Source: a virus
IMG/VR virus record: IMGVR_UViG_3300043436_001797
Location: 1-64,000 of that record
DNA length: 64,000 nt
Strand: one strand, 5' to 3'
The notes beneath the pieces are model-generated. The model did not search any database. It worked only from the letters and a program-made list of their open reading frames with translations, and was not told the DNA's origin. This document shows, in pieces, positions 9,431 to 35,354 of the stretch (position 1 is its first letter; each line of letters opens with the position of its first letter). A program made the translations under genes and the position numbers.

Positions 9431-9723
9431 TATACTATACATACAAAATAGATTATACGGACAATAATGGGCACGTTTCTACTGTGTCTCAAACAAGGGC
9501 TTGTGAGGATATAGACTATCCTACCAGTTTAGATGATACAAAACTTATTGTTCAGCAACAAGCATGGGCTTTGAATAACTTTAGTTTAGTAACAACGTAT
9601 ACTGAAACAACAACTAATATTACTCTAGCTCAATACAACGCTATTGTACTAGATCCAACATCAGTAGAATCTATTCCTGATTGGGATCCAAATGACCCCA
9701 TAATTCCACAATATGAAAATTAA
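9427..9723 (+). CDS. Small protein coupled to tail fibre
   Basis: A 98-residue acidic protein that overlaps the fibre stop by 4 nt (ATGA) and the subtilisin start by 11 nt. Its composition is beta-strand then helix. Small genes right after a fibre gene are often fibre chaperones or caps; that is only a positional guess here. No family is recognised. Confidence 0.65.
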   Translation: MIYYTYKIDYTDNNGHVSTVSQTRACEDIDYPTSLDDTKLIVQQQAWALNNFSLVTTYTETTTNITLAQYNAIVLDPTSVESIPDWDPNDPIIPQYEN

Positions 9724-11764
9724 CTCGGTAAAATTCAAAGACAAAAAGTCTTTTGACAAAAACAAAAAGAAATCTAACGTGCTTTCAATACATGAACCAT
9801 TTGGTATCATTGTATTTGAAGATAAGACTGATGTTATTCCAGATACTGCTAAAGTATCTCAGAGCAATGAAATAAATTCTTCGGAAGATCAAATTTCTAC
9901 AGGACTTGCAATAGTTATTGCAAAAAATCATGGAGAGGCTGCTAACTACTTTAGATTAAATGACATAGTAGTTAAGGATTCTTATGAATTGACTAAGACA
10001 TTCTTTGTTGAGGTTCCTGATTTTATATCATTTGATTCTTTTTATGGAAGTCTTATGTCTACCGGTATTTTTATTAGCGTAGAACCAGACTACATAGTAC
10101 CAATGGACATGGATGCTGAAACAGTATACAATGGTCATTGGCACCTTCCTAATATGAAAGCAGCAGAAGCGTGGTCTCTTTTAACAGGAGATAACACTGG
10201 AGAAGTTGCTGTATTAGATATTGCTTGTGAAACTGGACATGAGGATTTACAAGGTGCGCTTAGTTCCCTATCTTGGAACTGTGTAACTGATGGACCAGAT
10301 GTAAACCCTATATCAGATTACGAAAATCATGGAACATCCTGTACTGGAGTTATTGCTGCAGTATGTAACAACAATATCGGATCTCTTTCACTAGGCAACA
10401 ACAAACTCAAAGTGCAGTTTTTGCATATTGGTTATAACAGTACCAGTGGTGGTAGTTTCCAAACATCTGATACTATTGTAACTAGAGCAATTAACAAAGC
10501 AATTGCTAACCCAAAATGTTACGCTATCTCTATGTCATGGGGTGGTACCGGTAACTACCCAATCTTTGTAAATGCCTTAAATACAGCTAAAACTGTAGCT
10601 AGAAATGGTAAGGGTATTCCAATTTTTGCATCAAGCGGTAATCAAAACAACCCCAGCTTTACGCAAAACCCAGCAGCATATCCATCAGTAATGGCGATAG
10701 GTGCTTCTACATCTACAAATACTAGAGCTAACTTTAGTAACTACGGTCCAAAAACATTTGCAGCTGCACCCGGTGTATCTCTTTGGACAGTTGATAGAAC
10801 TGGTCCTTTAGGTTATGGTGCAGACTCTTACAAAGGATTTAGTGGTACATCTGCTTCTTGTCCTGCGATGGCTGCGGTAGCAGCTGCAGTTCTTGTAAAG
10901 AATCCAGAACTTACTGAAATGCAAGTAAGAGATATTCTGAAAAACTCATGCAGAAAGACAGGTGGATATGTATACAATGCTGATGGTTGGTCAAATGAAC
11001 TTGGTTATGGTGTGATTGACATGTTTGCTGCTGTTACTCAAGCTGCTGCAACACTTCCTGGAGAACCAACTCCTGGTCCAACACATAACTACTATGGTGC
11101 AGTTTCTAGTCCAGCTACAGTTCAGCAAGGTTCTGTTGTAAACGTAGTTTACTCTGTAATGTCTGACAAACCTGTTACTAATGATACAGTTGTTCCTGTG
11201 TTATTGTCATTTAAACGTGCAGATAATGCAAGTCTAAACTTCTATACAGGTACTGTAACTATTCTTGCGGGACAAACTTCTGCATCTGCAACCATTCCTT
11301 ACACTGTTCCTAACACATTTAGTGGAGTTTGCCAGTTTGTGCTTACAGTAGACCCTAACAATTTTGTTCAGGAGACTAATGAGAATGACAATGTAGCAAT
11401 GACATCTATCAATGTTACTCTTCCTCCTGCTCCAACTGAAGGTGTGGATCTTCTTGTTAAGATTGAAAGCTACGAGTTTCTTGATTCTACAAGAGTAAGA
11501 ATTAGATACACCTTTTCAAACGTAGGTAAAGTTGATGTTGTTAGTCTAAAAGCTACTGCTGGATTTGATGGTAAACCTGCAACTACTTGGACTAGAACGG
11601 AACTTTATAGACCCGGAACTAGTAAGTCAATGGCATCTGTGTTCCCATCAAACATGTGGGGTACATTGCCAAACACTTTCCGGATCAAGATAATTCAGGT
11701 AAATGGTGTAGCAGATGCTAATGCATCCAACAATGAAAGTTCAATAATCATAAATCCACGATAA
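9713..11764 (+). CDS. Subtilisin-like serine protease (S8) with CARDB domain
   Basis: A 683-residue protein. The subtilase triad is complete: D169 (VAVLDIA), H206 (NHGTSC) and S380 (GTSASCP). An oxyanion-type Asn lies in FASSGNQN. Residues 1 to about 135 look like a propeptide or adaptor. Residues about 460-570 match a CARDB-type adhesion domain (SDKPVTNDT, ETNENDN), and a further beta domain follows to the end. I see no N-terminal signal peptide, which fits a virion-attached enzyme better than a secreted one. Coupled to the tail-fibre gene, it may cut surface proteins or capsule-bound proteins during adsorption, or process the fibre itself. The protease class is firm; the target is unknown. 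Confidence 0.88.
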   Translation: MKINSVKFKDKKSFDKNKKKSNVLSIHEPFGIIVFEDKTDVIPDTAKVSQSNEINSSEDQISTGLAIVIAKNHGEAANYFRLNDIVVKDSYELTKTFFVEVPDFISFDSFYGSLMSTGIFISVEPDYIVPMDMDAETVYNGHWHLPNMKAAEAWSLLTGDNTGEVAVLDIACETGHEDLQGALSSLSWNCVTDGPDVNPISDYENHGTSCTGVIAAVCNNNIGSLSLGNNKLKVQFLHIGYNSTSGGSFQTSDTIVTRAINKAIANPKCYAISMSWGGTGNYPIFVNALNTAKTVARNGKGIPIFASSGNQNNPSFTQNPAAYPSVMAIGASTSTNTRANFSNYGPKTFAAAPGVSLWTVDRTGPLGYGADSYKGFSGTSASCPAMAAVAAAVLVKNPELTEMQVRDILKNSCRKTGGYVYNADGWSNELGYGVIDMFAAVTQAAATLPGEPTPGPTHNYYGAVSSPATVQQGSVVNVVYSVMSDKPVTNDTVVPVLLSFKRADNASLNFYTGTVTILAGQTSASATIPYTVPNTFSGVCQFVLTVDPNNFVQETNENDNVAMTSINVTLPPAPTEGVDLLVKIESYEFLDSTRVRIRYTFSNVGKVDVVSLKATAGFDGKPATTWTRTELYRPGTSKSMASVFPSNMWGTLPNTFRIKIIQVNGVADANASNNESSIIINPR

Positions 11765-17131: not shown

Positions 17132-17794
17132 ATGGCTAAGACAAACATCGAAAAGACACCTCCAAAAGGAGAGATCAAGTTCTCAATTACTCTTTCAGAA
17201 GAACAGAAAAAAGCTAAAGAACTGATTATCAGTACACCTTATAATTTTCTTATTGGATATGCTGGTAGTGGTAAGACTTTAGTTGCTGTACAGATAGCCC
17301 TAGATCTTTACTTTAAGAGAAGAGTAAATAAGATTATTATAACCAGACCTACAGTTTCTACTGAGGATAATGGGTTTCTTCCTGGTTCTGAGAAGGAAAA
17401 GATGGAACCATGGTTAGTTCCGATTAAGTCTAATATGAGAAAAGTCTATGACAAACCTGATATCCTAAACAAGATGGAAGAGGAAGGTCAAATAGAACTT
17501 GTGTCCCTTAGTCACTTTAGAGGTAGAACCTTTGAGAACGCTGTGTGTATAATAGATGAGTTTCAGAATCTAACTAAAGCACAATTACAAATGTGCGTAG
17601 GTAGATTAGGTAAGGGTTCTATCATGATATTTACAGGTGATTTACAGCAGATTGACCTTAAGATAAAAAGTGATTCTGCTATTCATGATATTCCTAAAAT
17701 TGAAAAATCAGCATTTGTAAATAAGATAGTTCTTACAGAGAATCATAGACATGAAGCTCTAAATGAAATACTCAAACTATTAAATGAGTACTGA
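17132..17794 (+). CDS. phoH: PhoH-like ATPase
   Basis: A 220-residue P-loop ATPase of the PhoH family. Walker A is GYAGSGKT at about residues 42-49. The PhoH signature IITRPTVSTEDNGFLPG follows, then Walker B VCIIDEFQN at about 140-148, and IFTGDLQQIDL as the SF1-like motif. PhoH is a frequent phage gene whose role, perhaps RNA helicase or phosphate-stress linked, is unsettled. It overlaps the terminase start by 11 nt, so it is expressed with packaging genes. Confidence 0.9.
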   Translation: MAKTNIEKTPPKGEIKFSITLSEEQKKAKELIISTPYNFLIGYAGSGKTLVAVQIALDLYFKRRVNKIIITRPTVSTEDNGFLPGSEKEKMEPWLVPIKSNMRKVYDKPDILNKMEEEGQIELVSLSHFRGRTFENAVCIIDEFQNLTKAQLQMCVGRLGKGSIMIFTGDLQQIDLKIKSDSAIHDIPKIEKSAFVNKIVLTENHRHEALNEILKLLNEY

Positions 17795-20000
17795 AATCTA
17801 CGAACATATACCCACTTACAGCAATGGAGAATGGAGCTACACAGATTTTGAAAGTAGAAAAGATTTCTATGAATTCTGCTTCTCAATCTTTAAAGAACCT
17901 GGGCAATATGAATTTGATGAAGTATCTCAACTGTTTAACGAACAAGCACGTCTGTTTAATAAAAACGGAATTTATTGCACAGCACCATCTGGAACTAAAG
18001 ACTTTATAAAATACTGGGATACTGAAAAAGAAAAGTGTAGAAAGGGTGTGATATATAAATCAGGTACCAAATCTTGGTATATCACCCGTGACTACTACAT
18101 GTGGTTGAACTTTCTTCCTATCTTCAATAAAGAAACACAGAAGTACGGATTTGCTGATGTACGTGATGCACAGTATCACATGGCTCTTTATGAGATACTT
18201 GCAGAACTAGATTATAAGCACTGTGCTATTCTAAAGAAACGTCAGATTGCTAGCTCTTATTTCCATTGTGGCAAACTCATAAATCAAATATGGTTTGAGG
18301 AAGGGGTTACCCTAAAGATGGGAGCTAGTCTCAAGGATTATATCAATGAGAAAGGTAGCTGGAAGTTTTTAAATGAATATGAATCATTCTTAAATAAACA
18401 TACAGCTTGGTATAGACCTATGAACCCCAACAAAACAATGTTCTGGCAACAGAAGATTGAGATATCAAACTTTGTTGGTGGACAGAAGAGAAAGACTGAG
18501 ATAGGTCTAAAGGGTGTAATCCAAGCAATGTCTTTTGAGAAAAGCCCTACTACGGGTGTCGGTGGTCCTACTAAATACTTCTTTCACGAAGAAGCTGGTA
18601 TTGCACCAAAGATGAATCAGACCTACGAATACTTACGACCTGCACTTAGATCTGGTATGATTACCACAGGTACATTTATAGCAGCAGGTTCTGTCGGTGA
18701 CTTGAGTCAGTGTGACCCGCTTAAAAAGCTGATCCTACACCCGGAAGCGAATGATATATATGCTGTCTTTTCTGATCTTATAGATAATAAAGGAACAATA
18801 GGAACAACAGGTTTATTTATACCTGAACAGTGGTCTATGCCACCATATGTAGATAAGTATGGTAATTCACAGGTTCCTGAAGCACTTAAAGCGCTTGACG
18901 ATTTATTTGCTAAATGGAAGAAAGAACTGGATCCTCAGGAATACCAACTCCGTATATCTCAGCACCCTAGAAATGTAAAAGAGGCATTTGACTTTAGAAC
19001 CTTGTCTCTATTTCCTGCACATTTGGTCACAGGTCAAATGCATAGAATAGATGATAAAGAATATCCCTATGAGTTTCTAGATATTTACAGAAACATACAA
19101 GGTGGTGTTGAGGTGCAGACTACTAATAAGATGCCTATCATGGAGTTCCCGGTTACTAAAAATACCGAGGATAAAACAGGTACACTAGTAGTATGGGAAA
19201 GACCTGTAAAGGATCCCGAGTTTGGTATGTACTACGCTTCTATTGACCCCGTGTCAGAAGGTAAGACAACTACCTCAGAATCACTGTGTTCCATTTATAT
19301 TTATAAAACTCCTGTAGAAGTAACTAAAAATAATGGTTCCGAGATACAGACATATATCGAAAGAGACAAGATTGTAGCTGCTTGGTGTGGTCGTTTTGAC
19401 GATATTAAAAAGACTCATGAGAGACTTGAATTAATTATAGAGTGGTATAACGCGTGGACAATAGTGGAAAATAACATCCCGCAGTTTATTACTTATATGA
19501 TTGATAGGAAAAAGCAGCGTTATCTGGTACCCAGAAGTCAGATATTATTCTTAAAAGATATTGGTGCAAACGCTAACGTTTATCAAGAATATGGGTGGAG
19601 AAATACAGGCACTCTATTTAAGAGTCACATGATTAGCTACGCTATTGATTTTTTAACTGAGGAACTAGATCAAGAAGTTACATCAGAAGGTAAAGTTGTA
19701 AAGACTACTTACGGTATAGAAAGGATACCAGACCCTATGCTTTTAAAAGAAATGATGGAGTATAGGGATGGAGTAAACGTCGATAGATTAGTATCATTTG
19801 CTGCATTAATAGCTTTTGCTAAAGTCCAACAAGCAAACAGAGGATATAAAAAGAGATACGAGGAGACGGAGAATGTAAAAAAGTTGGATAATAATGATAA
19901 ATTCAGTAAATTAATTAGGAGCCCGTTTCGTCATATTGGCGGATCTGGTAATACTTTTGGCATGAGGGTTCCTAAACAACCGTTCAGAAATTTAAGATAA
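17784..20000 (+). CDS. terL: Terminase large subunit
   Basis: A 738-residue packaging motor. The ATPase part has a diverged Walker A (ILKKRQIASSYF, about residues 149-160), an adenine-binding region before it, and Walker B KYFFHEEAG at about 263-271 with the catalytic Glu. The nuclease (RNase H-like) part starts with D488 (ASIDPVSEG) and has a late acidic residue D667 (VDRLVSF). It packages concatemeric DNA through the portal. The portal gene follows after 1 nt. A terL of about 740 residues next to a portal of about 920 is larger than in most phages. Confidence 0.92.
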   Translation: MSTEIYEHIPTYSNGEWSYTDFESRKDFYEFCFSIFKEPGQYEFDEVSQLFNEQARLFNKNGIYCTAPSGTKDFIKYWDTEKEKCRKGVIYKSGTKSWYITRDYYMWLNFLPIFNKETQKYGFADVRDAQYHMALYEILAELDYKHCAILKKRQIASSYFHCGKLINQIWFEEGVTLKMGASLKDYINEKGSWKFLNEYESFLNKHTAWYRPMNPNKTMFWQQKIEISNFVGGQKRKTEIGLKGVIQAMSFEKSPTTGVGGPTKYFFHEEAGIAPKMNQTYEYLRPALRSGMITTGTFIAAGSVGDLSQCDPLKKLILHPEANDIYAVFSDLIDNKGTIGTTGLFIPEQWSMPPYVDKYGNSQVPEALKALDDLFAKWKKELDPQEYQLRISQHPRNVKEAFDFRTLSLFPAHLVTGQMHRIDDKEYPYEFLDIYRNIQGGVEVQTTNKMPIMEFPVTKNTEDKTGTLVVWERPVKDPEFGMYYASIDPVSEGKTTTSESLCSIYIYKTPVEVTKNNGSEIQTYIERDKIVAAWCGRFDDIKKTHERLELIIEWYNAWTIVENNIPQFITYMIDRKKQRYLVPRSQILFLKDIGANANVYQEYGWRNTGTLFKSHMISYAIDFLTEELDQEVTSEGKVVKTTYGIERIPDPMLLKEMMEYRDGVNVDRLVSFAALIAFAKVQQANRGYKKRYEETENVKKLDNNDKFSKLIRSPFRHIGGSGNTFGMRVPKQPFRNLR

Positions 20001-20001
20001 T

Positions 20002-22764
20002 ATGCAAGTATATAACGCCCTACAAGTTAAAGCAGGTGCTAAGACAGAGTACAACAAAATGGGTACTCTCAATCAGCCTATACAATTTTTACCTAGATCT
20101 AAAAAAGATGAAGATTGGGCAGCATGGTGTCTAGATTGGTTGGAGTGGCAAGGATTAAAGATGGTGCGCAGAAATGCACGTCGTCTTATGAAGAACTACA
20201 AACTTGCAAAAGGACTTATTGATAGAACTGACTATGTAATTGAAGAGGATAACGAGTACGCAGATTTAATTGATACTCTAACTAAAGAGGATGCATCTGC
20301 ACTAGAATTAAAATTCTATCCTATTATCCCCAATGTAATTAATACCCTTACTGCTGAATTTTCTAAAAGAGTTACTAGAGTAACTTATGGTGCTGTAGAT
20401 GAATACTCCTACAATGAAATGTTGGAGCAAAAGAAAGCAGAAGTAGAACAGTTATTGGTTAGCGATGCTAAGCGTAAAATAACTGAAAGAATGCTGATGA
20501 TGGGTGCAGATCCAGAGAGTCCTGAGTTTAAAGAACAAACATCTCCAGAAGCATTAAGAAGTTTACCTGAAATTGAAGCATTCTATCAGAAGGATTACCG
20601 CTCAATGATTGAACAGTGGGCGGAACATCAGCACCGTGTAGATAATGAGCGTTTTCATATAGATGAATTAGAAGAGCGTGGTTTCCGTGATCTTCTCATT
20701 GCAGACAGAGAATTCTGGCACTTTAAGATGATGGAGGATGACTATGATGTAGAGTTGTGGAATCCAGTACTTACATTCTATCAAAAAGCTCCTGAGACTA
20801 GATATATTTCTGACGGTAACTGGGTTGGTAAGTATGATATGATGACTGTTGCTGATGTCATTGACAAGTATGGTTGGTTGATGACAGATAAGCAAATGGA
20901 AGCAATAGAACTTATCTACCCGGTAAGATCTGCCGGTTATCCTATTCAGGGTTATCAGAATGATGGTGCTTATTACGATGGTACAAAGTCACATGAGTGG
21001 AATACTAACATGCCATCACTTGGTTACAGACAGTTTACTTCTATGTGGGATAGTGCTGTCTATGGCGGTGATATTGTAAACTGGATCATGATGGAGAACG
21101 AAGACTACCTAGACATGGGTATGTCTAACCTTCTTCGTGTTACTACAGTATATTGGAAGTCGCAAAGACGTGTAGGACATCTTACTAAGATTACATTATC
21201 CGGTGATGTCATTACAGAGATTGTTGATGAAGATTATAAAGTTACAGATAAACCTGAGTACAACACTTCACTTATAAAGAATAAAACCAAACACACTCTT
21301 GTATTTGGTGAGCATATAGACTGGATCTGGATTAACCAGGTTTGGGGTGGTGTAAAGATTGGTCCGAACAGACCTACATTCTGGGGTACAAATAACCCTG
21401 GTGGTATTACCCCTATTTATTTAGGTATAAATCAGAATCACATTGGACCACTTAAGTTCCAATTTAAAGGTGATAATTCACTCTATGGATGTAAACTTCC
21501 TGTAGAAGGTTCAGTATTCTCTGATAGAAATACTTACTCAAGGTCTCTTGTTGACCTTATGAAACCTTTCCAGATTGCTTACAACATTGTAAATAATCAG
21601 ATTGCTGATATCCTAGTAGATGAATTAGGTACAGTGATTATGCTTGACCAGAACTCTTTACCAAGACACTCACTGGGAGAAGATTGGGGAAAGGGTAACT
21701 TTGCTAAAGCATATGTAGCAATGAAGAACTTCCAGATGTTACCTCTGGATACGTCTATTACTAATACTGAGAATGCTCTAAACTTTAACCATTTCCAGAA
21801 ACTGGATATGTCACAGACTGAGCGTCTGATGTCTAGGATTCAATTAGCTCAGTACTTTAAACAGCAAGCATTTGAGGTAATTGGTATTACCCCGCAGCGC
21901 TTAGGTCAAGAGATATCAAGACAAACTGCTACCGGTATAGAGCAATCTATCAACGCTAGTTATGCACAGACTGAATCTTACTTTATTCAGCACTGTGACT
22001 ACTTGATGCCTAGAGTACACCAGATGCGTACAGACTTGTCTCAGTACTACCATTCTACAAAACCTTCAGCAAGACTGAATTATATAACTTCTCTTGATGA
22101 GAGAAAAAACTTTGAGATAAATGGTACTGATTTCTTGCTCCGCGATATTAATGTGTTTGCTACTACTAAAGCCAACCAGAGAGCTATTCTTGAACAGCTT
22201 AAGCAGCTTGCTCTTAACAATAATACTGCTGGTGCTAGTATCTATGATCTGGGTAATATTCTTAAGTCTGATTCTATTTCTGAAGTTACGCACATTCTCA
22301 AACAAACGGAGAAGAAAGCAGACCAAGTAAGACAACAGGATATGCAGCAACAGCAACAGATGCAGGAACAAATGATTCAAGCTAAGCAGCAAGAAGAGCA
22401 GCTTAAGAGACAGTTTGAAGCATCTGAGAAAGATAAAGACAGACAAGCTGAAATTATAGTAGCTCAAATAAGATCTGCAGGATACGGAGCTATGATGGAT
22501 ATTAATGAGAATAAGCAGTCTGACTACATGGATGCAATGGATCAAATTCAGAAGTCTGAAAACTACCAGAACACTATGGATCTTAATCGTGAGAAGGAAG
22601 CTAACAAGATGATGCAGTCTAGAGAGAAGTTGAATATTGAAAGAGAGAAAATAAATGCTCAGAGAGAAATAGCAAATACTCAGTTACGGATAGCTCAAGA
22701 GAATAAAAACAGGTTTGATGCACCCAACAAAACTGAACAAAAGGACAAAAAGAAGAAGAACTAG
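20002..22764 (+). CDS. Portal protein
   Basis: A 920-residue protein right after terminase, as expected for the portal. The N-terminal 730 residues hold the portal body: a Trp-rich clip region (EDWAAWCLDWLEWQG, about 36-51), long helices, and LAQYFKQQAFEVIGITPQRLG as a wing-stem helix. The last about 170 residues are a Gln/Lys-rich coiled coil (QQQQQMQEQMIQAKQQEEQ), a likely barrel or inner extension. It forms the dodecameric ring at the packaging vertex. The length matches crAss-like and other large podovirus portals, from memory. Confidence 0.88.
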   Translation: MQVYNALQVKAGAKTEYNKMGTLNQPIQFLPRSKKDEDWAAWCLDWLEWQGLKMVRRNARRLMKNYKLAKGLIDRTDYVIEEDNEYADLIDTLTKEDASALELKFYPIIPNVINTLTAEFSKRVTRVTYGAVDEYSYNEMLEQKKAEVEQLLVSDAKRKITERMLMMGADPESPEFKEQTSPEALRSLPEIEAFYQKDYRSMIEQWAEHQHRVDNERFHIDELEERGFRDLLIADREFWHFKMMEDDYDVELWNPVLTFYQKAPETRYISDGNWVGKYDMMTVADVIDKYGWLMTDKQMEAIELIYPVRSAGYPIQGYQNDGAYYDGTKSHEWNTNMPSLGYRQFTSMWDSAVYGGDIVNWIMMENEDYLDMGMSNLLRVTTVYWKSQRRVGHLTKITLSGDVITEIVDEDYKVTDKPEYNTSLIKNKTKHTLVFGEHIDWIWINQVWGGVKIGPNRPTFWGTNNPGGITPIYLGINQNHIGPLKFQFKGDNSLYGCKLPVEGSVFSDRNTYSRSLVDLMKPFQIAYNIVNNQIADILVDELGTVIMLDQNSLPRHSLGEDWGKGNFAKAYVAMKNFQMLPLDTSITNTENALNFNHFQKLDMSQTERLMSRIQLAQYFKQQAFEVIGITPQRLGQEISRQTATGIEQSINASYAQTESYFIQHCDYLMPRVHQMRTDLSQYYHSTKPSARLNYITSLDERKNFEINGTDFLLRDINVFATTKANQRAILEQLKQLALNNNTAGASIYDLGNILKSDSISEVTHILKQTEKKADQVRQQDMQQQQQMQEQMIQAKQQEEQLKRQFEASEKDKDRQAEIIVAQIRSAGYGAMMDINENKQSDYMDAMDQIQKSENYQNTMDLNREKEANKMMQSREKLNIEREKINAQREIANTQLRIAQENKNRFDAPNKTEQKDKKKKN

Positions 22765-24122: not shown

Positions 24123-25751
24123 ATGGCAACTCCAGTTTTAAATAATGGTATATTTCTACGAGATACCAACTACGCAGCTAGTTCACACGTAGATTCATAC
24201 CACTTAGTTAACATGTTAAAGAATGCAGAACCAATGGACATGGGTCCAGTGGATCTGTGGGCAATGGCACAAAAAGTCGAAATGCCTCTTTACCAAATGT
24301 CTAGCTTTGGTGGTAAGAATGTGATCATGGTTGACAACGCAAGAGGTGAGTACAAGTGGCAGACTCCAGTTGTACAAGATCTTCCTTACGTTATTGAAGA
24401 TATTGAACCAAGCAATACTGTTAAAGGTATTGATGGCAGTACCTTTAAAATTAAACTTTCACGTCGTGAGTTCGGTCATGGTGATATTATCACTTATGAC
24501 AAGTACAACGGTGTGGAAATGTACATTGTTCCTGATCAGGATATTCTTCCAATGGGTGATGGTTTTATTTACACAGTACAACTTGTAAATAACGACAACA
24601 CTAAGTTCTTGGAAAACAAGTATCTTGCATCTGGTACTAAAGTATTCCGCAAAGGTTCTGCTCGTGGTGAGTACGGAGAGCGTTTCTCTGATATTCAAAT
24701 CCAGTCAGGTTTCCGCGAATTCTACAACTTTGTAGGTGGTGCTGAAGCTCACGTACACTACTCTATTTCATCTCGCGCTGATCTTATGATCAAAGGTGGT
24801 ATGAATGCAGATGGTACTGTACCTGTAACTGAAATCTGGAGAAACTTCGACCAGAACATGGATCCTTCTATCACTAACCTTGAGAACATGGTTAGCCGTA
24901 TGGGTAAGGAGTATGTTAAAAAGGCGATGTCAAACGGTAACCTTTCTCGTACTTTCTTGACTACAATGGAAGCTGCTCACTTGACTAAAGTAGCAAGCGA
25001 CATTGAAACCTACTTGATGTGGGGACAAGGTGGTAGAGTTCGTCAAGACGGTCCAGATGATGTAAGATTGTCTGTGGGTCTTTGGAGACAGCTTGACAAC
25101 TCATTCAAGCGTGTATACAACAAGTCAGGTTTCAACCTTGATTTGTTCCGCTCTGAAATCTACAACTTCTATGCTGGTAAGGTTGAATTTAAGGGTCCAG
25201 ATCCTAAGCGTCAACTGATCGTACAAACCGGTATGGGTGGTATGAGAATGGTTAACGAAGCTATCAAGAAAGAGGCAGTTAACTCAGGTTTGGTTATCCA
25301 AGCTGCTGATAACGCTGGTATCGGTGCTATCACTGGTAAGGGTATGGATCTCGGATTTGGTTTTGCATACACTTCTTACGTTATCCCATTCTTGGCAAAC
25401 GTGAAGTTTGTATTGAACCCTGCTTTCGATAACATCCACACTAATGACATTGAAAACCCAATCATTGACGGTTTCCCATTGTCTTCTTACAACTTCATCA
25501 TCTTCGATATCACTGACAACACTAACGACAATATCTTCTTGTTGAAGTTGTCTTGGGATAACCAATTGAAGTGGTGGTACCAAAACGGTACAATGGACTA
25601 CATGGGTCGTACCCAAGGATTCCAGTCTTCTGGACAGTTCAATGGATACCGTGTATATATGACACAAACAATGCCTGCAATTTGGGTAAAAGACCCAACC
25701 AAGGTGTTGAAGATCGTTATGAGAAACCCTGTAACCGGCGGATCATTCTAA
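24123..25751 (+). CDS. Major capsid protein (likely)
   Basis: A 542-residue protein with no Cys-rich or membrane parts, downstream of terminase, portal and scaffold. Codon use is shifted to C-ending codons compared with its neighbours, a sign of very high expression, and a strong terminator follows. An extended N-terminal arm, an E-loop-like beta region (about 75-170) and a large mixed domain fit an HK97 fold, but this is inference. I see no obvious proteolytic N-terminal delta domain. Confidence 0.82.
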   Translation: MATPVLNNGIFLRDTNYAASSHVDSYHLVNMLKNAEPMDMGPVDLWAMAQKVEMPLYQMSSFGGKNVIMVDNARGEYKWQTPVVQDLPYVIEDIEPSNTVKGIDGSTFKIKLSRREFGHGDIITYDKYNGVEMYIVPDQDILPMGDGFIYTVQLVNNDNTKFLENKYLASGTKVFRKGSARGEYGERFSDIQIQSGFREFYNFVGGAEAHVHYSISSRADLMIKGGMNADGTVPVTEIWRNFDQNMDPSITNLENMVSRMGKEYVKKAMSNGNLSRTFLTTMEAAHLTKVASDIETYLMWGQGGRVRQDGPDDVRLSVGLWRQLDNSFKRVYNKSGFNLDLFRSEIYNFYAGKVEFKGPDPKRQLIVQTGMGGMRMVNEAIKKEAVNSGLVIQAADNAGIGAITGKGMDLGFGFAYTSYVIPFLANVKFVLNPAFDNIHTNDIENPIIDGFPLSSYNFIIFDITDNTNDNIFLLKLSWDNQLKWWYQNGTMDYMGRTQGFQSSGQFNGYRVYMTQTMPAIWVKDPTKVLKIVMRNPVTGGSF

Positions 25752-26061: not shown

Positions 26062-27081
26062 ATGAGTGATACTTTTACAATTGTGCAAACTCCAGGTATT
26101 AAATCTGGACCTATTGCAATCCGTCCATTCTTTAATCAAAATGTCTCTAACATGGGACTTGAAAAGTATGGATTATCTTTATTTGAGGGAGTTTTTCATG
26201 AAGAACAACTTGCATGTATTGAGCAGAACGGTGTGAAGCGATACATTACAGGTCTGAATGAATTTGCTCCTGAAGTTAAAATGATTAGAGACGAAGATCA
26301 GAAGAAAGCTAAAATTAATGAGATTCGTGCTGCTGTATCTGAACTAGAAAAAGAGATGGCAGCAAATCCGATTGAAGTGTCTGATCCACATTTCTGGAGC
26401 AAAGTAAAATTATTACGCCCTGAGAATGATGATTTCTGGACCAAGATTACATTGAGGTGTGGAAACACCCCAATGTTTCTTGATCCGGTAAAAGATCCTT
26501 TTGATAGAATTAGACTTTATGCTATTGAAGCAGGTGGGTTTAGCATCGTCGCAAAGAGCTATGAGGAGGCTAAAAACAAACCTACTCCAGTTAAATTTTA
26601 TTTAGATAAATACGAAGAAACCGCTGGAACTAAAACTGAAGTTAAAAAACTTCGTAACAAAGCTCTTGCTGAGCTTCAGAAGTTGTTTGATAAGAATCCA
26701 GTTAAGATGATGTACGTAGCAAAGATTGTAGACATTAATAGTGTTCAGTATAAGAAGTCTACACCAAATGATGTTATCTACGATAATATGGATATTTATA
26801 TCAATGGTGAAGGTTCTGAGACGAGTCCTACAAGAGCGGCTCAAACTTTCTTAGATACCGTAAACCTTGATATGGAAACACTAAAACTAAAGTCAGTTAT
26901 TAGAGATGCTAACTACTTAAGGTATATTGTTACCAAACCGGATGGATTTATTTACCATGCTTCGTCATCAACAATGCTTGGTAGAAATCCATCAGATGTT
27001 TTAGAATATCTGAAGAATCCTTTGAATGAAGAGATCCTGAAAGATCTATTAAAGTCAACCGAAAAATACTGGAATCAATAA
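26062..27081 (+). CDS. Capsid-region structural protein, unknown
   Basis: A 339-residue mixed alpha/beta protein with a helical segment at about 75-105 (QKKAKINEIRAAVSELEKEMA) and a second Lys/Glu-rich helix at about 190-215. It sits between the capsid genes and the cassette of tiny basic proteins, whose first gene overlaps its stop by 1 nt (TAATG). It is probably a virion or assembly protein. No family is recognised. Confidence 0.65.
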   Translation: MSDTFTIVQTPGIKSGPIAIRPFFNQNVSNMGLEKYGLSLFEGVFHEEQLACIEQNGVKRYITGLNEFAPEVKMIRDEDQKKAKINEIRAAVSELEKEMAANPIEVSDPHFWSKVKLLRPENDDFWTKITLRCGNTPMFLDPVKDPFDRIRLYAIEAGGFSIVAKSYEEAKNKPTPVKFYLDKYEETAGTKTEVKKLRNKALAELQKLFDKNPVKMMYVAKIVDINSVQYKKSTPNDVIYDNMDIYINGEGSETSPTRAAQTFLDTVNLDMETLKLKSVIRDANYLRYIVTKPDGFIYHASSSTMLGRNPSDVLEYLKNPLNEEILKDLLKSTEKYWNQ

Positions 27082-27245
27082 TGGGAAACATGCTATATCA
27101 AGCTTCTGACAATATGAGTACTGTCAAAGGCGATAAGACTGCTAAGTACAGCAATGCTGCTACAAATCTTTCTTTAACAAATTCTCCAGACCTAACCAAA
27201 TCTTTACTAAATTATAGTAAAGCAAGTAATTATGGCGGCAAGTAA
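27081..27245 (+). CDS. Tiny protein 1 of basic cassette
   Basis: A 54-residue Asn/Ser/Lys-rich protein starting in a TAATG overlap with the previous stop. It ends in SNYGGK, a double-Gly tail. The next gene starts 14 nt before its stop. Called from the tight overlaps; no family is recognised. Confidence 0.55.
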   Translation: MGNMLYQASDNMSTVKGDKTAKYSNAATNLSLTNSPDLTKSLLNYSKASNYGGK

Positions 27246-27390
27246 AAAACAAATGATTAAGCGCAAAGATGGATCCTACAGTCAACGAGGACTGTGGGAT
27301 AATATCCGCGCTAACAAAGGTTCTGGTAAGAAACCTACCAAGCAAATGCTAGAACAAGAAAAGAAAATTAAATCAAAAACCAAAAAGTAA
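27232..27390 (+). CDS. Tiny basic protein 2, LWDNIRANKGSGKKPT motif
   Basis: A 52-residue very basic protein. The core RGLWDNIRANKGSGKKPT and MLEQEKKIK match a small protein I remember from many unrelated phage genomes, always near capsid genes. No function is known. It ends in TAATG, shared with the next start. Confidence 0.7.
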   Translation: MAASKKQMIKRKDGSYSQRGLWDNIRANKGSGKKPTKQMLEQEKKIKSKTKK

Positions 27391-27602
27391 TGGCTGCTAA
27401 AAAGTCAACCAGTAAAAAGTCTTCCCCTGTGGTATCTATGTCATCTAAAGCAGAGATGCGTAAGTGGGAGGTAGAATCTGCTATGAATACACTTCGTAGA
27501 GCAGATGAAATCCGTAAGGATGCTAAGATGATGGGTGATGTAAAGAAACTTGCACAAGAGCAAATTAAAATGTTAGGTGGTATTGCTAACCCTAAAAAGT
27601 AA
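27390..27602 (+). CDS. Tiny helical protein 3
   Basis: A 70-residue protein with a basic N-terminus and one long amphipathic helix (MNTLRRADEIRKDAKMMGDV). This pattern, LRxxxEIRxD, recurs in short phage proteins from memory. It is coupled to both neighbours by TAATG overlaps. Function unknown; it ends MLGGIANPKK, again with a double Gly. Confidence 0.7.
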   Translation: MAAKKSTSKKSSPVVSMSSKAEMRKWEVESAMNTLRRADEIRKDAKMMGDVKKLAQEQIKMLGGIANPKK

Positions 27603-27847
27603 TGGCAAAGAAAGTTAAAGTAACAGCGGGTGGTGAGAAGCATGTAGTCTATAAGAAGACTACTAAACGCGGTAAAGGAGAACCCGGTGATATTATGGTG
27701 AACCACCCTACCAAAGATAAAGGTAAGTGGGATACCATAAACCTAACTAAGATTGGTAGAGCAAAGACAGTAGCAGAAGGTGTAGCATCCACTAAAAAGT
27801 GGCACAAGGATAACCCTGATTACAAGTACAAAAAGAAGAAAAAGTAA
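27602..27847 (+). CDS. Tiny basic protein 4
   Basis: An 81-residue Lys-rich protein. NHPTKDKGKWDTINLTKI and GVASTKKWHKDNP look like a conserved folded core between Lys-rich ends. TAATG overlap with the gene before. I recall similar proteins in other Bacteroidota phages but no function. Confidence 0.7.
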   Translation: MAKKVKVTAGGEKHVVYKKTTKRGKGEPGDIMVNHPTKDKGKWDTINLTKIGRAKTVAEGVASTKKWHKDNPDYKYKKKKK

Positions 27848-27848
27848 T

Positions 27849-28097
27849 ATGGCAAAGTCACCTGCATGGCAAAGAAAAGAGGGTAAGTCACCAAGTGGTG
27901 GACTTAACGCTAAGGGTAGAGCTTCCTACAATAAGGAAACAGGAGGTAACCTTAAAGCACCACAACCTGAAGGTGGTTCTAGAAAGAAGTCATTTTGTGC
28001 AAGAATGTCCGGGATGAAAAAGAAGCTTACTTCTAGCAAAACAGCTAATGATCCAGATAGCAGGATTAATAAAGCTTTGCGTAAGTGGAAATGTTAA
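27849..28097 (+). CDS. Small phage protein, GGLNAKGRASYN family
   Basis: An 82-residue basic protein with the widespread phage motif SGGLNAKGRASYN near the N-terminus, then KSFCARMSGM, then LRKWKC at the end. From memory this corresponds to a family of unknown function (DUF6321) found in many podoviruses and siphoviruses near capsid genes. The two conserved Cys may bind metal or form a disulfide. Confidence 0.78.
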   Translation: MAKSPAWQRKEGKSPSGGLNAKGRASYNKETGGNLKAPQPEGGSRKKSFCARMSGMKKKLTSSKTANDPDSRINKALRKWKC

Positions 28098-28114
28098 TGT
28101 AAATTAGTAATACT

Positions 28115-28330
28115 ATGGCAAAGAAATCAAAGTCTCCATTACCAAAAAAACTACTTGGTGGAGGTGGTAAAGAAGACAAGTATAGCGGATTAGGATTTAA
28201 TCCTGCTGCTCCTGGAATGTTTAATATGGGTAAAAGGACAGCAGCTCTTGGAGCTTATGTGAGTAAGAACGGTATACCCGGAATGAAAAAAGGTGGTTCT
28301 ACTAAATCTAAAAAAAGAAATGAAAAGTAA
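28115..28330 (+). CDS. Tiny Lys/Gly-rich protein 6
   Basis: A 71-residue protein with a Gly4 run (LLGGGGKE) and a C-terminal GMKKGGSTK. It overlaps the next gene by 11 nt. The KxGG phrase near the end is shared with later cargo proteins. No family is recognised. Confidence 0.62.
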   Translation: MAKKSKSPLPKKLLGGGGKEDKYSGLGFNPAAPGMFNMGKRTAALGAYVSKNGIPGMKKGGSTKSKKRNEK

Positions 28331-28499
28331 ATGCATGCAGTGCGGTGGCGCTAAAAAAATGAAAGCAGGTGGTGCTAGTGAATCCTTTAAAAAACTTGCA
28401 CCTCCTTATGATAAAGCTACCTATGCTGATAAAATTGCTGGCGCTAAAAAGAATGCCGGTACAATGAAAAAAGGTGGTGCTGTAAAAAAGAAGAAGTAA
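28320..28499 (+). CDS. Tiny protein 7 with CMQCGG and KxGG motifs
   Basis: A 59-residue protein from the ATG at 28320; an ATG at 28335 is the alternative, and a longer frame from 28293 is unlikely. It holds CMQCGGAKKMKAGGAS and ends GTMKKGGAVKKKK, so three double-Gly sites in under 60 residues. A single CxxC may bind metal as a dimer. Confidence 0.6.
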   Translation: MKSKCMQCGGAKKMKAGGASESFKKLAPPYDKATYADKIAGAKKNAGTMKKGGAVKKKK

Positions 28500-28810
28500 T
28501 GAAAAAGAAGCTTAAAAAATATCAGTCACAGGGTGAAGTTAAACGCAAGGGGTACATGACTCCTGTTGCTCCAAAAGATACCACTGGCTACGGAAGTGCA
28601 GCTGACAGAATAAGAAAAGCGCTTGAAAAAAGAGACCCAGGTTTTTATAAAACTCCTGAAAGTGTAGGAGGAAAATCAGGAAATATTGATCCTAAGTTTG
28701 CGATAGATCCTAAAAAAGTAGGTGCTAAGTCTGGTGATATTGATCCAGGATTTAACAAGAGTGTGCCTAAGAAAAAGTTAGGTGGCACAAATAAAAAGAA
28801 AAAGAAGTAA
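28499..28810 (+). CDS. Small basic protein 8 with N-terminal KYQ
   Basis: A 103-residue protein. It begins MKKKLKKYQSQGEV, which resembles the LDKYQ motif repeated in the 2311-residue cargo protein. An internal near-repeat, GKSGNIDPKF and AKSGDIDPGF, spans about residues 58-90. It ends KLGGTNKKKKK. TAATG overlaps on both sides. Confidence 0.65.
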   Translation: MKKKLKKYQSQGEVKRKGYMTPVAPKDTTGYGSAADRIRKALEKRDPGFYKTPESVGGKSGNIDPKFAIDPKKVGAKSGDIDPGFNKSVPKKKLGGTNKKKKK

Positions 28811-28974
28811 TGGCAAAAGATAAAAAGTGGATTCAAAGCGCTACTGCTAGCATCAAGCGTAGAGGTACAGAGGGAGTCTGCACCGGATCTAAATTTGGTA
28901 GCTCATCTTGTCCCGCTGGTAGCAAGAGATACAATCTTGCTAAGACTTTTAGAAAGATGGCTAAGAAAAAGTAA
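28810..28974 (+). CDS. Tiny basic protein 9, IKRRGTEGVC family
   Basis: A 54-residue protein: KWIQSATASIKRRGTEGVC, then GSKFGSSSC, then YNLAKTFRKMAKKK. The layout of a Trp-Ile start, IKxxG, two Cys and a final LAKTFRKMA recurs in tiny phage proteins, from memory. It may bind DNA or a capsid component; unknown. Confidence 0.68.
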   Translation: MAKDKKWIQSATASIKRRGTEGVCTGSKFGSSSCPAGSKRYNLAKTFRKMAKKK

Positions 28975-28995
28975 TCTATAAATTCTATATATAAA

Positions 28996-29190
28996 ATGAA
29001 AAAGTATATGACAGGTGGTGTAGCTAATCCTAATACAAAAGCTACAGTTCAGAAAGTAGCTGGTTCAAAAGGTGCAGGTACTACTAAATCTACCAAAGCT
29101 ACTGTAGATAAAAAAGCAACTGGTAGAACAGGTGGTGGTAACAAACCCGCTTCTGTTGAGCCTAAGAGCAAGAAGAAAAACGTTAAGTAA
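28996..29190 (+). CDS. Tiny Lys/Thr/Gly-rich protein 10
   Basis: A 64-residue low-complexity basic protein (KATVQKVAGSKGAGTTKSTK) that resembles histone tails in composition and is likely unfolded. It begins MKKYMTGGVA, again a GG near the N-terminus. It overlaps the connector gene by 1 nt (TAATG). Confidence 0.62.
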   Translation: MKKYMTGGVANPNTKATVQKVAGSKGAGTTKSTKATVDKKATGRTGGGNKPASVEPKSKKKNVK

Positions 29191-29894
29191 TGTTAAACAG
29201 TACCCTTAGATTAAAGATTCAACAGCGGTTAAACAAACTCGCTAGTCAGGACTACGATAATATCGAGTGCTGGCAAATTGTTGAAGCTTTTAATAAAGCT
29301 CAAATCGAATGGGTACGTAGACAAATCATGGGTCGTAATGCTGCGCAAGCAGGTGCAGAACAAACTGTACGAAAGATTGATGATTTGCAAAACTTGCTTA
29401 CACCACTTTCCCTTACTTCATTAAACGCGGGAGACTACTATTTAACCAATCCTCTACCAAATAACTATCTAGAGTATCACAAGCTAGACATAACAGCTAC
29501 AAAAGACTGCTGTACAGATCCAAAAGATCTTATAGTTTATTTGGTTGAGGAGGTTAATAGCAGCGTTCTTCTTAGAGATGAGTTACGCAAACCAAATTTT
29601 GAGTGGGCGGAGACTTTTTGCACAGTTGTAAATAATGCCATCAGAGTATATACAAACGGTGAGTTTGAAATAAGAGATGTTACTCTGATGTATTATAGAC
29701 AACCTCGTCGTATAGCAATTGCTAACTGCGGTGATCCATATACCGGTGCAATAACTACGACAGATGTAGAATGCGAGTTTCGAGATGATATTGCTGAAGT
29801 ATTGGTTGACGCTGCTGCATCTATATTAGCAGCTGACATAGAATCATTTAGTCAGTATACTCGTACTTCACAACAATCAGAAACTAATACATAA
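29190..29894 (+). CDS. Head-tail connector/adaptor candidate
   Basis: A 234-residue protein. An N-terminal helical part (about 1-65, RLNKLASQDYDNIECWQIVEAFNKA) and a beta part with conserved YYLTNPLPNNYLEYHKL resemble adaptor/ring proteins that sit below the portal. It resembles in style the protein at 47249, which suggests related folds. Position after capsid genes supports a connector role. Inference. Confidence 0.6.
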   Translation: MLNSTLRLKIQQRLNKLASQDYDNIECWQIVEAFNKAQIEWVRRQIMGRNAAQAGAEQTVRKIDDLQNLLTPLSLTSLNAGDYYLTNPLPNNYLEYHKLDITATKDCCTDPKDLIVYLVEEVNSSVLLRDELRKPNFEWAETFCTVVNNAIRVYTNGEFEIRDVTLMYYRQPRRIAIANCGDPYTGAITTTDVECEFRDDIAEVLVDAAASILAADIESFSQYTRTSQQSETNT

Positions 29895-29896
29895 TT

Positions 29897-30346
29897 ATGG
29901 AAAATAATGTTTTAAGAAGATCCCTTAAGACTGGATCACAACAATCACAGAGCGCGTCTTCTAGCAGCAAAGGTGCTGACATGGGGAAACTTGTTTCAGA
30001 ATTTTTGGAAGCAGTAACTTCTGTGCATAAAGCTCATCTTAAAATTACAGGTCCTGGTTCATATGCTGCACATACAGCAATGGGTGCATTTTATGATGAA
30101 ATCGGAGATCTTGCTGACTCTATTGCTGAGTCATACCAGGGAGTAACCGAGACGCTGTTAAATATTCCAGCTACTCAACAAGCTTCCTTTACTAGTGCGG
30201 GAGACTGCGTAAACTTCTTGAATGACCTCTACCAAAAGGTGGATGCTGCTCAAAAAGCTTGTGCTTATTCTGAGATTATTAATGACTTAGACAATGTCAA
30301 GTCACTGATTAACGGCACTAAGTATAAACTAATTTTCTTGAAATAA
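29897..30346 (+). CDS. Ferritin/Dps-like helical protein
   Basis: A 149-residue protein. After a Ser-rich leader, residues about 30-90 carry a helix pair with HLKITGPGSYAAHTAMGAFYDEIGDLADSIAE, in which H47, Y56, H59, E68, D71 and E78 repeat the ferritin-like pattern. From memory this matches a phage family related to Dps (DUF5856). Metal binding or DNA protection is possible; it could also be structural. Confidence 0.65.
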   Translation: MENNVLRRSLKTGSQQSQSASSSSKGADMGKLVSEFLEAVTSVHKAHLKITGPGSYAAHTAMGAFYDEIGDLADSIAESYQGVTETLLNIPATQQASFTSAGDCVNFLNDLYQKVDAAQKACAYSEIINDLDNVKSLINGTKYKLIFLK

Positions 30347-32412: not shown

Positions 32413-32556
32413 ATGTCACAGTGTCCAAATTGCGGAGCAGCTATGAGCTGCGGATGTCAAAAGAAAGTACTTTCTAATGGTAAAATAGGATGTACTAAAT
32501 GTGTTAATCAAACTTCTACAGCAGAGGCAAAAGAAACTGAAACTAAGAAAGAATAA
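32413..32556 (+). CDS. Tiny zinc-ribbon protein
   Basis: A 47-residue protein with CPNC near the start, CGC in the middle and CTKC at residues 27-30, enough for a zinc ribbon, then an acidic/basic tail. It overlaps the next start by 1 nt (TAATG). Confidence 0.65.
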   Translation: MSQCPNCGAAMSCGCQKKVLSNGKIGCTKCVNQTSTAEAKETETKKE

Positions 32557-35354
32557 TGGCAACAAGATCGTATGTTTTAGCAACAGGGGCTAATTATTTA
32601 AAAGTATCTGATGATCAGGGGTTGACATGGGAAACCATTACCCCCTCAGGTTATCCGTCAAATCTTGCAAATATTACCTCTATTGCAGCTAGTACTTTTG
32701 ATCCTTACAAAGCTCTTATAACATCATCTAGTGAAGGACTATGGTCTACAACAGATGGTGGTGTTTCTTTTACCCAAGTTCCTGGAACCGGAGGTGTTTC
32801 ACTTTACTCAGTAAATTATCTTGATGGTGTTAGAATTGTAGCAGTTGGTTCAGAAGTATACCGATCTTTTAATGGAGGTACATCATTTACATTAACTGGC
32901 GTAACTCCTGCATCTTTATATGGATCCTCAGGACCAAACATATATTTTAGAAATGTACATTTTGGTTCAAACTTTATAGGGTTTGCCTCTATTTTTGATA
33001 AAATCTATAAGACCTATAACACAGGTCTTACTTGGGAATCCACTAATAGTAATGCAGCTATTGTAGCCGGAAAGTTTGTTGTTGGAATTATACATCTGAA
33101 TGATACTAATGTTGTTATTGCTCTTGTTGAGGATAGCGGTGTGTATGTTTCATTAGATGGGGGTATTAGCTTCTCTCTTTCAACAGCAACACCAGTAATA
33201 GATCTTAATACTAGTTTTATATCAACAGCGGGTCAAAGTGCAGGTACATGGATAATTGATTCTAATCAAGATATTTACTACAGTTCTGGTAGTGGTCTTG
33301 GATATACTTTAGTAGGTAATTATCCTTTTGGCGCTCCTTTAGAACAAGCTGTATTTGGTTTCAGTGGTTCAAATGCTATATTTATTGGTGCTGGTATTAC
33401 TAGCGCATCTACTACTATTCACACAACACAAAATGGTGGTGCAACTTTAAATGAAGAAGCAAATTACACAGGTATTGCAAAAGCATTATCATCCACACTT
33501 GACTATGAGTGTGGTGAATGTCCTGGTAAATCTGATTTTAACCCTCAAACAGGGTTTTGTGAAGACACTGAATTAGCAGGACCTATATGTCCTCCTGGTT
33601 ATATATATGACCCTGTTGCTAATACTTGTACTGGACAAGGAGCTGAAGGATCAATTGATATAGTAGTTTCTAGAGATAATTCTGGATCTGTATTAAGTAA
33701 TAGCAATTATTGTTCTTATACAAATGGTTCAGAATGGGGTCAAATGAACGCCATGCTGAGCGATGTTGTAGTTGGTTTGTCTGCAGGATTATCTGCAGGA
33801 ACTACTCAAATTGCTGTTGGTGACTGGTCTAGTTGCGGAGCTGCTGGTAACCAATCTACTATTGTTCTGGGATTAACAAGTAATGAGACAAGTATTAATA
33901 ACGCTATTTGTGCAGCTCGTAGTTATAATGGAGGTACTTGTCAAACAATAGGTCTTTGCGCTGCCTATAATGAACTTATAAATGGTAGCACAGCAAATCC
34001 GTCAGCTGAAAAGATGTTAATTTTAGTCACTGACGGAAAACCGAGGATATCAGATCCGTGTTCAGTTCTACCATATCCCGCTAGCTCTGGTATAGGTGAT
34101 TTTGCAGACGCAGAAAATACAAGATCTTTAGCTGAGCAAATTAAACAACAAGGTGTAAGATTAGTACTTGTTGTTTTAGGTGAACCTGACGAAAGACAAG
34201 ATGTCTATGACAGTTTGGTACAACCTATTGGGAACACCTATCTTAGTAGTCAGTTGACATATCCTCCCGTACCTAGTTTAGATGACAATGGTAATCTTCT
34301 TTATTTTGAATCTGATTTTACTAATTCCCAAGCACTTGTTCAAAATATTATAAATAGCCTTACTACTGAAGTAACTATACCTGCACCCACTTGTGAAAAT
34401 TGCACTATATATGTTGATCCTGGTGATGGTACAGCATATTTTCAGTCTAATGTGCAGTATGATTTTATCCCATGTTGCTATAAACTAAGTAGCTGTGATA
34501 GTGCTACTGAAATTTATTCTAATACAGATCTTTCTCAGTATGATGGACAAGTTGTAAATATTGCTGGACAGGAAGGATGTTTTTCCATATCTCAACTTAG
34601 TTCAGTATGTATAGAAGATGCTCAGGAGGTTACTGTTACAACAGTTTATGGAAGTTGTGAAACATGTCTTCCATCTTTTAAACTATATAACTGTAAGGAT
34701 ACTAATATATCAATTCAGACATCTAATACACAGTTTGAAGCACTTTTAGGAAAAACTGTAAAGCTTGTTGAATATCCTGGTGACTGCTGGCAAGTAGGAC
34801 CAAATAGCGAAAAAACATTACCACTAGAACCCTTAACACCTAGTGGTGAACCTTTCCAGACATGTATTGAGTGTGATCCAAAAGAGTATGGTTTGACAAA
34901 TTGTGTTAATGGGGTATCTGTTGCGTCCACTGTTGATCTTTCAGCATATGTGGGTAAGGTTATAAAAGCGGATAACTTTCCAGGACTTTGCTTTACAGTA
35001 GAGGAAAATCCTTGTGATTGTTTAAAGATAACTATTAATGGACAGGTTTATAACATTGACAGAGAGCAGAACCTTTTCAATGGAAAACCTTACTTTCAGT
35101 TTATAACAGCAAGTCAGCTATCTATTGTTTTGGCATATGACAGCAATGAAACAAGATGGGAGGTTTATAATCCAGAAACACAAGCTATCTATTTTTATTC
35201 TAACTTGAATATAGAATGCCCGATAACAAGTGTATGGGAAAGAGTAGATCCTAATTTTCCAGGAAATATTACCACTGAAGCGTGTCCATTGCCTATATTG
35301 AATATATCTGTAACAGAAGAATTTGCTAGTTGTGAGCCTTGTGTAAATTGTTAA
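32556..35354 (+). CDS. BNR/sortilin-like propeller fused to vWA domain, Cys-rich tail
   Basis: A 932-residue protein. Residues 1 to about 310 hold five or more BNR-type repeats (SDDQGLTWETI, STTDGGVSFTQV, RSFNGGTSFTLT, YNTGLTWEST, SLDGGISFSL), as in a beta propeller of the sialidase or sortilin type, without obvious sialidase Arg residues. Residues about 368-600 are a von Willebrand A domain with an intact metal site: D374-N-S-G-S and D493 in LVTDGKP. Residues about 620-830 hold three Cys-rich modules with the pattern YxLxNC to DLSxYVGxxV to GxCFxV. This is a plausible receptor-binding adhesin. The combination is unusual for a phage. Confidence 0.8.
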   Translation: MATRSYVLATGANYLKVSDDQGLTWETITPSGYPSNLANITSIAASTFDPYKALITSSSEGLWSTTDGGVSFTQVPGTGGVSLYSVNYLDGVRIVAVGSEVYRSFNGGTSFTLTGVTPASLYGSSGPNIYFRNVHFGSNFIGFASIFDKIYKTYNTGLTWESTNSNAAIVAGKFVVGIIHLNDTNVVIALVEDSGVYVSLDGGISFSLSTATPVIDLNTSFISTAGQSAGTWIIDSNQDIYYSSGSGLGYTLVGNYPFGAPLEQAVFGFSGSNAIFIGAGITSASTTIHTTQNGGATLNEEANYTGIAKALSSTLDYECGECPGKSDFNPQTGFCEDTELAGPICPPGYIYDPVANTCTGQGAEGSIDIVVSRDNSGSVLSNSNYCSYTNGSEWGQMNAMLSDVVVGLSAGLSAGTTQIAVGDWSSCGAAGNQSTIVLGLTSNETSINNAICAARSYNGGTCQTIGLCAAYNELINGSTANPSAEKMLILVTDGKPRISDPCSVLPYPASSGIGDFADAENTRSLAEQIKQQGVRLVLVVLGEPDERQDVYDSLVQPIGNTYLSSQLTYPPVPSLDDNGNLLYFESDFTNSQALVQNIINSLTTEVTIPAPTCENCTIYVDPGDGTAYFQSNVQYDFIPCCYKLSSCDSATEIYSNTDLSQYDGQVVNIAGQEGCFSISQLSSVCIEDAQEVTVTTVYGSCETCLPSFKLYNCKDTNISIQTSNTQFEALLGKTVKLVEYPGDCWQVGPNSEKTLPLEPLTPSGEPFQTCIECDPKEYGLTNCVNGVSVASTVDLSAYVGKVIKADNFPGLCFTVEENPCDCLKITINGQVYNIDREQNLFNGKPYFQFITASQLSIVLAYDSNETRWEVYNPETQAIYFYSNLNIECPITSVWERVDPNFPGNITTEACPLPILNISVTEEFASCEPCVNC

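What the first reader, a model, noticed from the sequence alone, without database searches (positions are those of the whole stretch)
27081..29190. Cassette of ten tiny Lys/Gly-rich proteins between capsid and connector genes
Ten genes of 52-103 codons follow each other, most with TAATG stop-start or short overlaps; several match motifs that recur in many unrelated phages without function. Together they may pack DNA, fill the capsid core or form a co-delivered set. Three of them are too short for usual gene callers.
Basis: partly seen in the sequence, partly recalled or inferred. Interest (0 to 1): 0.7.

Follow-up and report, generated by a model that had tools for sequence, protein, structure and literature searches.

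The report
Variable cassette of tiny basic proteins
Between its capsid and tail-ring genes, this uncultured crAss-like phage carries ten tiny, mostly lysine-rich genes whose kit of short modules recurs next to head genes in unrelated aquatic phages, most likely as small DNA-associated cargo packed in the virus particle, a role that is inferred and not yet shown.

Summary
The ten ORFs are real. The window is an environmental crAss-like phage. P2-P5 are under strong purifying selection (dN/dS 0.04-0.24); P6 and P8 are near-orphans; P1 is not Lys-rich. The slot is fixed but its content varies: in about 70 relatives the same junction holds 0-12 small genes (0-5.9 kb, reshuffled), and it is empty (bare TAATG) in cultured Leptolyngbya phage Lbo-JY46. 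P5 is DUF6321; P5 and a P2-like gene fill the MCP-adaptor slot of T7-like cyanophage P-SCSP1u and head-gene slots of other marine phages; P9 lies near gp23 in T4-like contigs. A DUF6321-bearing protein is in purified S-CREM2 virions (published mass spectrometry). Modules also occur inside long proteins, often right after a [YMF]xxGG motif that is eight-fold enriched in the cassettes and nearly absent from TerL, portal and ring proteins. Best reading: a hypervariable set of basic, probably internal, DNA-associated virion proteins working like T4 internal proteins. Packaging, DNA binding, ejection and GG cleavage are inferred for this phage. The gene-caller claim is not supported.

The parts
24123..25751 (+). 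Major capsid protein (left context)
   Evidence: PF23898 Crass_capsid 5.6e-31, phrog_11589
26062..27081 (+). 339-aa gene directly left of the cassette, conserved in sister phages and in Leptolyngbya phage Lbo-JY46
   Evidence: no family; 58-94% identity in 26 IMG/VR loci; 27% in Lbo-JY46
27081..27245 (+). P1, 54 aa, not Lys-rich (net +3), lineage-restricted
   Evidence: 9 loci; dN/dS 0.32-0.94
27232..27390 (+). P2, 52 aa, module RxDGSYSxRGLWDNIRANxGSGKKPTxxMLxQExKI; possible distant relative of GLYANIHAKR (phrog_16028) proteins
   Evidence: >=580 IMG/VR stretches; 78% mean column identity; dN/dS 0.07-0.24; hhalign E 0.0015 to the GLYANIHAKR set but probability only 17%
27390..27602 (+). P3, 70 aa, basic
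   Evidence: 46 loci; dN/dS 0.08-0.22
27602..27847 (+). P4, 81 aa, module KVKVTAGGEKHVVYKK...KWDTINLT
   Evidence: 256 IMG/VR stretches; dN/dS 0.04-0.07
27849..28097 (+). P5, 82 aa, DUF6321, invariant C-terminal Cys
   Evidence: PF19846 3.7e-23, 82.4 bits vs cut-off 28.5; 530 cultured phage records; alignment A1; AF2 pLDDT 84, helical
28115..28330 (+). P6, 71 aa, Gly/Lys-rich, near-orphan
   Evidence: one other IMG/VR relative; dN/dS 0.36 against it
28320..28499 (+). P7, 59 aa, CxxCGG near the N-terminus and repeated GG motifs
   Evidence: 80 loci by profile; dN/dS 0.45-0.78
28499..28810 (+). P8, 103 aa, near-orphan
   Evidence: one partial IMG/VR relative, 63% over 51 aa
28810..28974 (+). P9, 54 aa, module WIQxAxxSIKRRGTEGVCTGxKFGxxxCPxGSKRYNLAKTFRKMAKK
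   Evidence: 365 IMG/VR stretches, best 89% identical, but 50-55% to the nearest sister phages: allele replaced; AF2 two helices, pLDDT 72
28996..29190 (+). P10, 64 aa, N-terminus MKKYMTGG
   Evidence: 66 loci by profile; dN/dS 0.26-0.67
29190..29894 (+). Ring/connector-like protein (right context)
   Evidence: phrog_29507 9.7e-11; aligned counterpart gp062 of Cellulophaga phage phi4:1 is annotated as virion protein from MS/MS
29897..30346 (+). Dps-like (miniferritin) gene, neighbour of the cassette
   Evidence: phrog_858 1.8e-21; profile matches Dps-family structures at 1.8e-5; also beside module clusters in a second architecture

Best explanation
The cassette is a hypervariable cargo slot in the head-assembly operon of a crAss-like phage. 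It makes several tiny basic proteins late in infection; they are most likely packed in the capsid with the DNA and partly ejected with it, working like the T4 internal proteins. Shown here: the genes are real and selected; the slot is fixed while its content varies; the same modules sit by head genes in unrelated phages; the [YMF]xxGG motif is shared by the cassettes and by long module-bearing proteins. Shown in published work on a relative: a DUF6321-bearing protein is in S-CREM2 virions. Inferred: late expression and packaging in this phage, DNA contact by charge, a targeting or processing role for the GG motif, ejection.
For: Position fixed, content variable: 0-12 genes in about 70 distinct relatives, 480 unique proteins, median net charge +15, 97% positive; empty TAATG junction in Leptolyngbya phage Lbo-JY46. 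Same slot in unrelated phages: P-SCSP1u MCP - DUF6321 - P2-like - adaptor; HTVC031P scaffold - P2-like - DUF6321 variant - capsid; S-RIP2; HTVC033P run of seven tiny Lys-rich ORFs; P9 within about 1.5 kb of gp23 in four of six T4-like contigs. Virion evidence: S-CREM2 ORF137, listed in the MS virion proteome with 4 unique peptides (PMC10665884 Table 3), ends in DUF6321; a DUF6321 protein of S-SCSM1 is named 'Virion protein' and that of S-E7 'structural protein'. Motif: [YMF]xxGG 6.3 per 1000 residues in cassettes, 8.2-fold over shuffles, against 0-0.1 per 1000 in TerL, portal, g26062 and ring; directly before many internal modules. Dps-like gene beside the cluster in two architectures.
Against: No virion data for this lineage. 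The S-CREM2 peptides cover 4.1% of a 490-aa protein and need not come from the DUF6321 part. The P-SCSP1u cryo-EM capsid is built of MCP alone (PMC10575957), so no ordered copy was seen. No prohead protease was identified among the window genes examined (only a subtilase at 9713-11764). P2's link to the T7-like GLYANIHAKR proteins rests on a weak profile match plus synteny. The DUF6321 gene of P-SSM7 lies away from head genes. Most relatives were fetched because they carry a module, so the share of filled slots is biased upwards; among loci fetched by the flanking gene alone several are empty or nearly so.
Confidence: 0.5

Rival explanations
1. The small proteins act during head assembly or DNA packaging as scaffold-like helpers or charge shields and leave before maturation, so they are late morphogenetic factors and not virion cargo.
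For: In the head-gene block, in HTVC031P and S-RIP2 between scaffold and capsid genes; no ordered density in P-SCSP1u.
Against: A DUF6321-bearing protein is in purified virions of S-CREM2. The slot can be empty, and content varies more than is usual for assembly factors.
Confidence: 0.25
2. They are accessory host-takeover or counter-defence proteins made in the infected cell and not packaged; the slot is only a convenient, strongly expressed late insertion site.
For: Hypervariable content, gene shuffling and allele replacement; extreme conservation of some modules suggests a conserved partner.
Against: A head-operon position is late for takeover unless the products are packaged; recurrent co-location with capsid genes in unrelated phages.
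Confidence: 0.13
3. They are outer capsid decoration or cement proteins.
For: Position after the capsid gene.
Against: P-SCSP1u, which encodes the DUF6321 and P2-like pair, has no decoration protein (PMC10575957); most are short, Lys-rich, low-complexity sequences; the AF2 model of P5 is an open helical chain with no PDB match.
Confidence: 0.05

Closest known systems
T4 internal proteins IPI, IPII, IPIII (PMC9026906)
   Same: small basic proteins, variable between related phages, thought to contact DNA; a short, often N-terminal motif reminiscent of a capsid targeting sequence
   Different: no sequence relation shown; the motif here is [YMF]xxGG and not the T4 cleavage site; no gp21-type protease found; genes sit between capsid and ring genes, up to 12 at a time
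DUF6321 (PF19846), including T4-GC 119 of cyanomyoviruses
   Same: P5 is a full-length member, 82.4 bits against cut-off 28.5
   Different: here a free-standing gene in a cassette; in cyanomyoviruses the C-terminal domain of longer proteins, one of them found in virions
phrog_16028 GLYANIHAKR proteins of marine T7-like phages
   Same: P2 shares GL[WY]xNI[RH]A...GSG...PT; both lie beside or are fused to DUF6321
   Different: weak profile score (E 0.0015, probability 17%); homology not proven
crAss001 cargo proteins gp45-gp50 (PMC10172136)
   Same: crAss-like virions store internal cargo
   Different: crAss001 cargo are large ejection and RNA polymerase proteins; no such tiny-gene cassette is annotated between its MCP and ring genes

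Membership tests
Crassvirales-type phage | Crass_capsid MCP over curated cut-off | tested here: met
   107.9 bits vs 27
Crassvirales-type phage | several paralogous crAss ring proteins | tested here: met
   CrAss_Ring_2 1.1e-20 and CrAss_Ring_1 4.1e-13 at 47249-48837
DUF6321 (P5 only) | profile match over gathering score | tested here: met
   82.4 bits vs 28.5, full length
T4 internal proteins | small, strongly basic | tested here: met
   nine of ten net +9 to +19
T4 internal proteins | set that varies among related phages | tested here: met
   0-12 genes, shuffled order
T4 internal proteins | N-terminal capsid targeting sequence cleaved by a gp21-type prohead protease | tested here: inconclusive
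   enriched [YMF]xxGG, often N-terminal, but a different motif, and no such protease found in the ORFs examined
T4 internal proteins | hundreds of copies inside the virion, ejected with DNA | not testable with these tools
   needs virion MS; only a DUF6321-bearing relative is known from virions
Capsid decoration protein | ordered on the outer shell | not testable with these tools
   no structure can be determined here; the paper on P-SCSP1u reports no decoration protein

The most novel reading that the evidence does not exclude
A cross-lineage interior kit: short basic modules exchanged among crAss-like, T4-like and T7-like aquatic phages, encoded either as strings of tiny genes or as long multi-module precursors, with [YMF]xxGG acting as a capsid-targeting and cleavage tag that releases the modules inside the head.
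Probability: 0.2. Interest if true: 0.85.

Novelty: new variant of a known kind. Interest (0 to 1): 0.58.

Why it matters
It ties a Pfam domain of unknown function found in 530 cultured phage records, and several module families found in hundreds of uncultured phage contigs but not matched in 50,697 cultured phage records, to one kind of genome position and one testable role. It names cultured phages (P-SCSP1u, HTVC033P, S-RIP2, S-CREM2) in which virion location and GG cleavage can be checked directly, and it suggests that the capsid cargo of many aquatic phages is a shared, swappable kit.

Tried and rejected
Gene-caller claim: rejected. Chance ORFs: rejected for P2-P5 by dN/dS. Known folds: no PDB match for P2, P5, P9. 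NCBIfam: nothing meaningful. Bacterial origin of P2: only 2 loci in a scan of 84,980 species genomes. Plasmids: none for P4. P2, P4, P9, P6 against cultured phages: no match at protein level, but BLAST's low-complexity filter was on. g26062 and the ring gene against solved structures: no meaningful match. Promoter and terminator scans: at chance level. GG as a Shine-Dalgarno by-product of AAGGTGG: considered, spacing to the next start too long, not pursued. Literature on DUF6321: no paper in the held library. Host of the lineage through Leptolyngbya phage literature: none found.

Full report
What is there. The window lies in an 81,817-base IMG/VR record. Its head genes are crAss-like: TerL 17784-20000 and portal 20002-22764, MCP 24123-25751 (PF23898), and later two crAss ring proteins. 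Between a 339-aa gene (26062-27081) and a ring-like gene (29190-29894) lie ten small + strand ORFs, P1-P10. Six junctions are TAATG. Nine proteins carry net charges of +9 to +19; P1 does not.

Real genes. Against sister phages, dN/dS is 0.04-0.24 for P2, P3, P4 and P5, close to the range of the MCP (0.02-0.15), and below 1 for every gene that has a relative. P6 and P8 have one other relative each.

A fixed slot with changing content. 26 contigs were fetched by the left-hand gene and others by the modules. In about 70 distinct loci with both flanks the same junction holds 0 to 12 small genes over 0 to 5.9 kb, in shuffled order. Genes there were called with my own simple dynamic programme; 90% of its junctions are within 25 nt and 22% are stop-start overlaps of one base. 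Because many loci were fetched for carrying a module, the share of filled slots is biased upwards. In cultured Leptolyngbya phage Lbo-JY46 the slot is empty, with a bare TAATG. P9 of the window is up to 89% identical to distant loci but 50-55% to its nearest sisters, so alleles are replaced.

The same modules elsewhere. P5 is DUF6321, present in 530 cultured phage records, mainly cyanophages and pelagiphages. In P-SCSP1u, a T7-like cyanophage, DUF6321 and a P2-like protein fill the slot between MCP and adaptor. In HTVC031P and S-RIP2 the pair lies between portal/scaffold and capsid genes. HTVC033P has a run of seven tiny Lys-rich ORFs including both. P9 occurs in T4-like contigs; in four of the six with a gp23 match it lies within about 1.5 kb of it (positions worked out). 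The relation of P2 to the GLYANIHAKR proteins is suggestive only.

Virion evidence from relatives. S-CREM2 ORF137, detected in purified virions with 4 unique peptides (PMC10665884), ends in DUF6321. A BFVD entry names a DUF6321 protein of S-SCSM1 'Virion protein'; the one of S-E7 is annotated 'structural protein'. GenBank notes 'similar to S-SM1 protein' on T4-GC119 appear mainly on genes whose products were in the S-SM1 virion proteome, which suggests but does not show that GC119 was too.

The GG motif. In longer proteins that contain modules, the module is often directly preceded by GG: 21 of 34 distinct internal P2 copies, 13 of 15 P5, but only 7 of 37 P9. [YMF]xxGG occurs 294 times in 480 cassette proteins against 36 expected from shuffles, and is nearly absent from TerL, portal, g26062 and ring. 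It is often near the N-terminus. That fits a targeting or cleavage tag, as in T4 internal proteins (PMC9026906), but no matching protease was found, and a plain interaction motif or linker remains possible.

Structure. AF2 gives P5 as an all-helical open chain (pLDDT 84, pTM 0.50) and P9 as two helices (pLDDT 72); there is no PDB relative for P2, P5 or P9. In P-SCSP1u the published capsid is MCP only (PMC10575957), which argues against an ordered outer decoration.

Mechanism. I think these are hypervariable internal virion proteins, basic enough to sit with the DNA, some of them ejected. Steps shown: gene reality, slot, sharing, motif enrichment. Steps inferred: packaging in this phage, DNA contact, cleavage, ejection. 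A Dps-like gene next door, also found beside module clusters in a second architecture, fits a DNA-protecting neighbourhood.

Noticed in passing
window 24123-25751; L001: The closest cultured MCP relative of this crAss-like phage infects a cyanobacterium (Leptolyngbya phage Lbo-JY46, 28% identity over 99%), and TerL, portal and ring relatives are shared; crAss-like phages are usually linked to Bacteroidota.
   Followed up: partly
window 29897-30346: Dps-like miniferritin gene one gene downstream of the cassette; similar genes lie beside module clusters in other crAss-like contigs.
   Followed up: partly
window 9713-11764: Subtilase (Peptidase_S8, 7.8e-36) with a CARDB domain upstream of the terminase.
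   Followed up: no
window 32556-35354: 932-aa protein with VWA and sortilin-like domains in the tail region.
   Followed up: no
L040:4992-6641, L067:2377-4266, L219:2763-6779, L258:4041-7541: Long crAss-like proteins that look disordered and carry P2 and/or P9 modules together with many GG motifs.
   Followed up: partly
L287 (Roseobacter phage CRP-4): Small-gene cluster with a GLYANIHAKR protein, a phrog_7595-like module and a 33-aa Lys-rich ORF.
   Followed up: no
L289 (PQ492659): Limnohabitans phage DC33, a 39-kb record with a GLWANIHAKR protein, is labelled Inoviridae, which looks wrong for its size.
   Followed up: no
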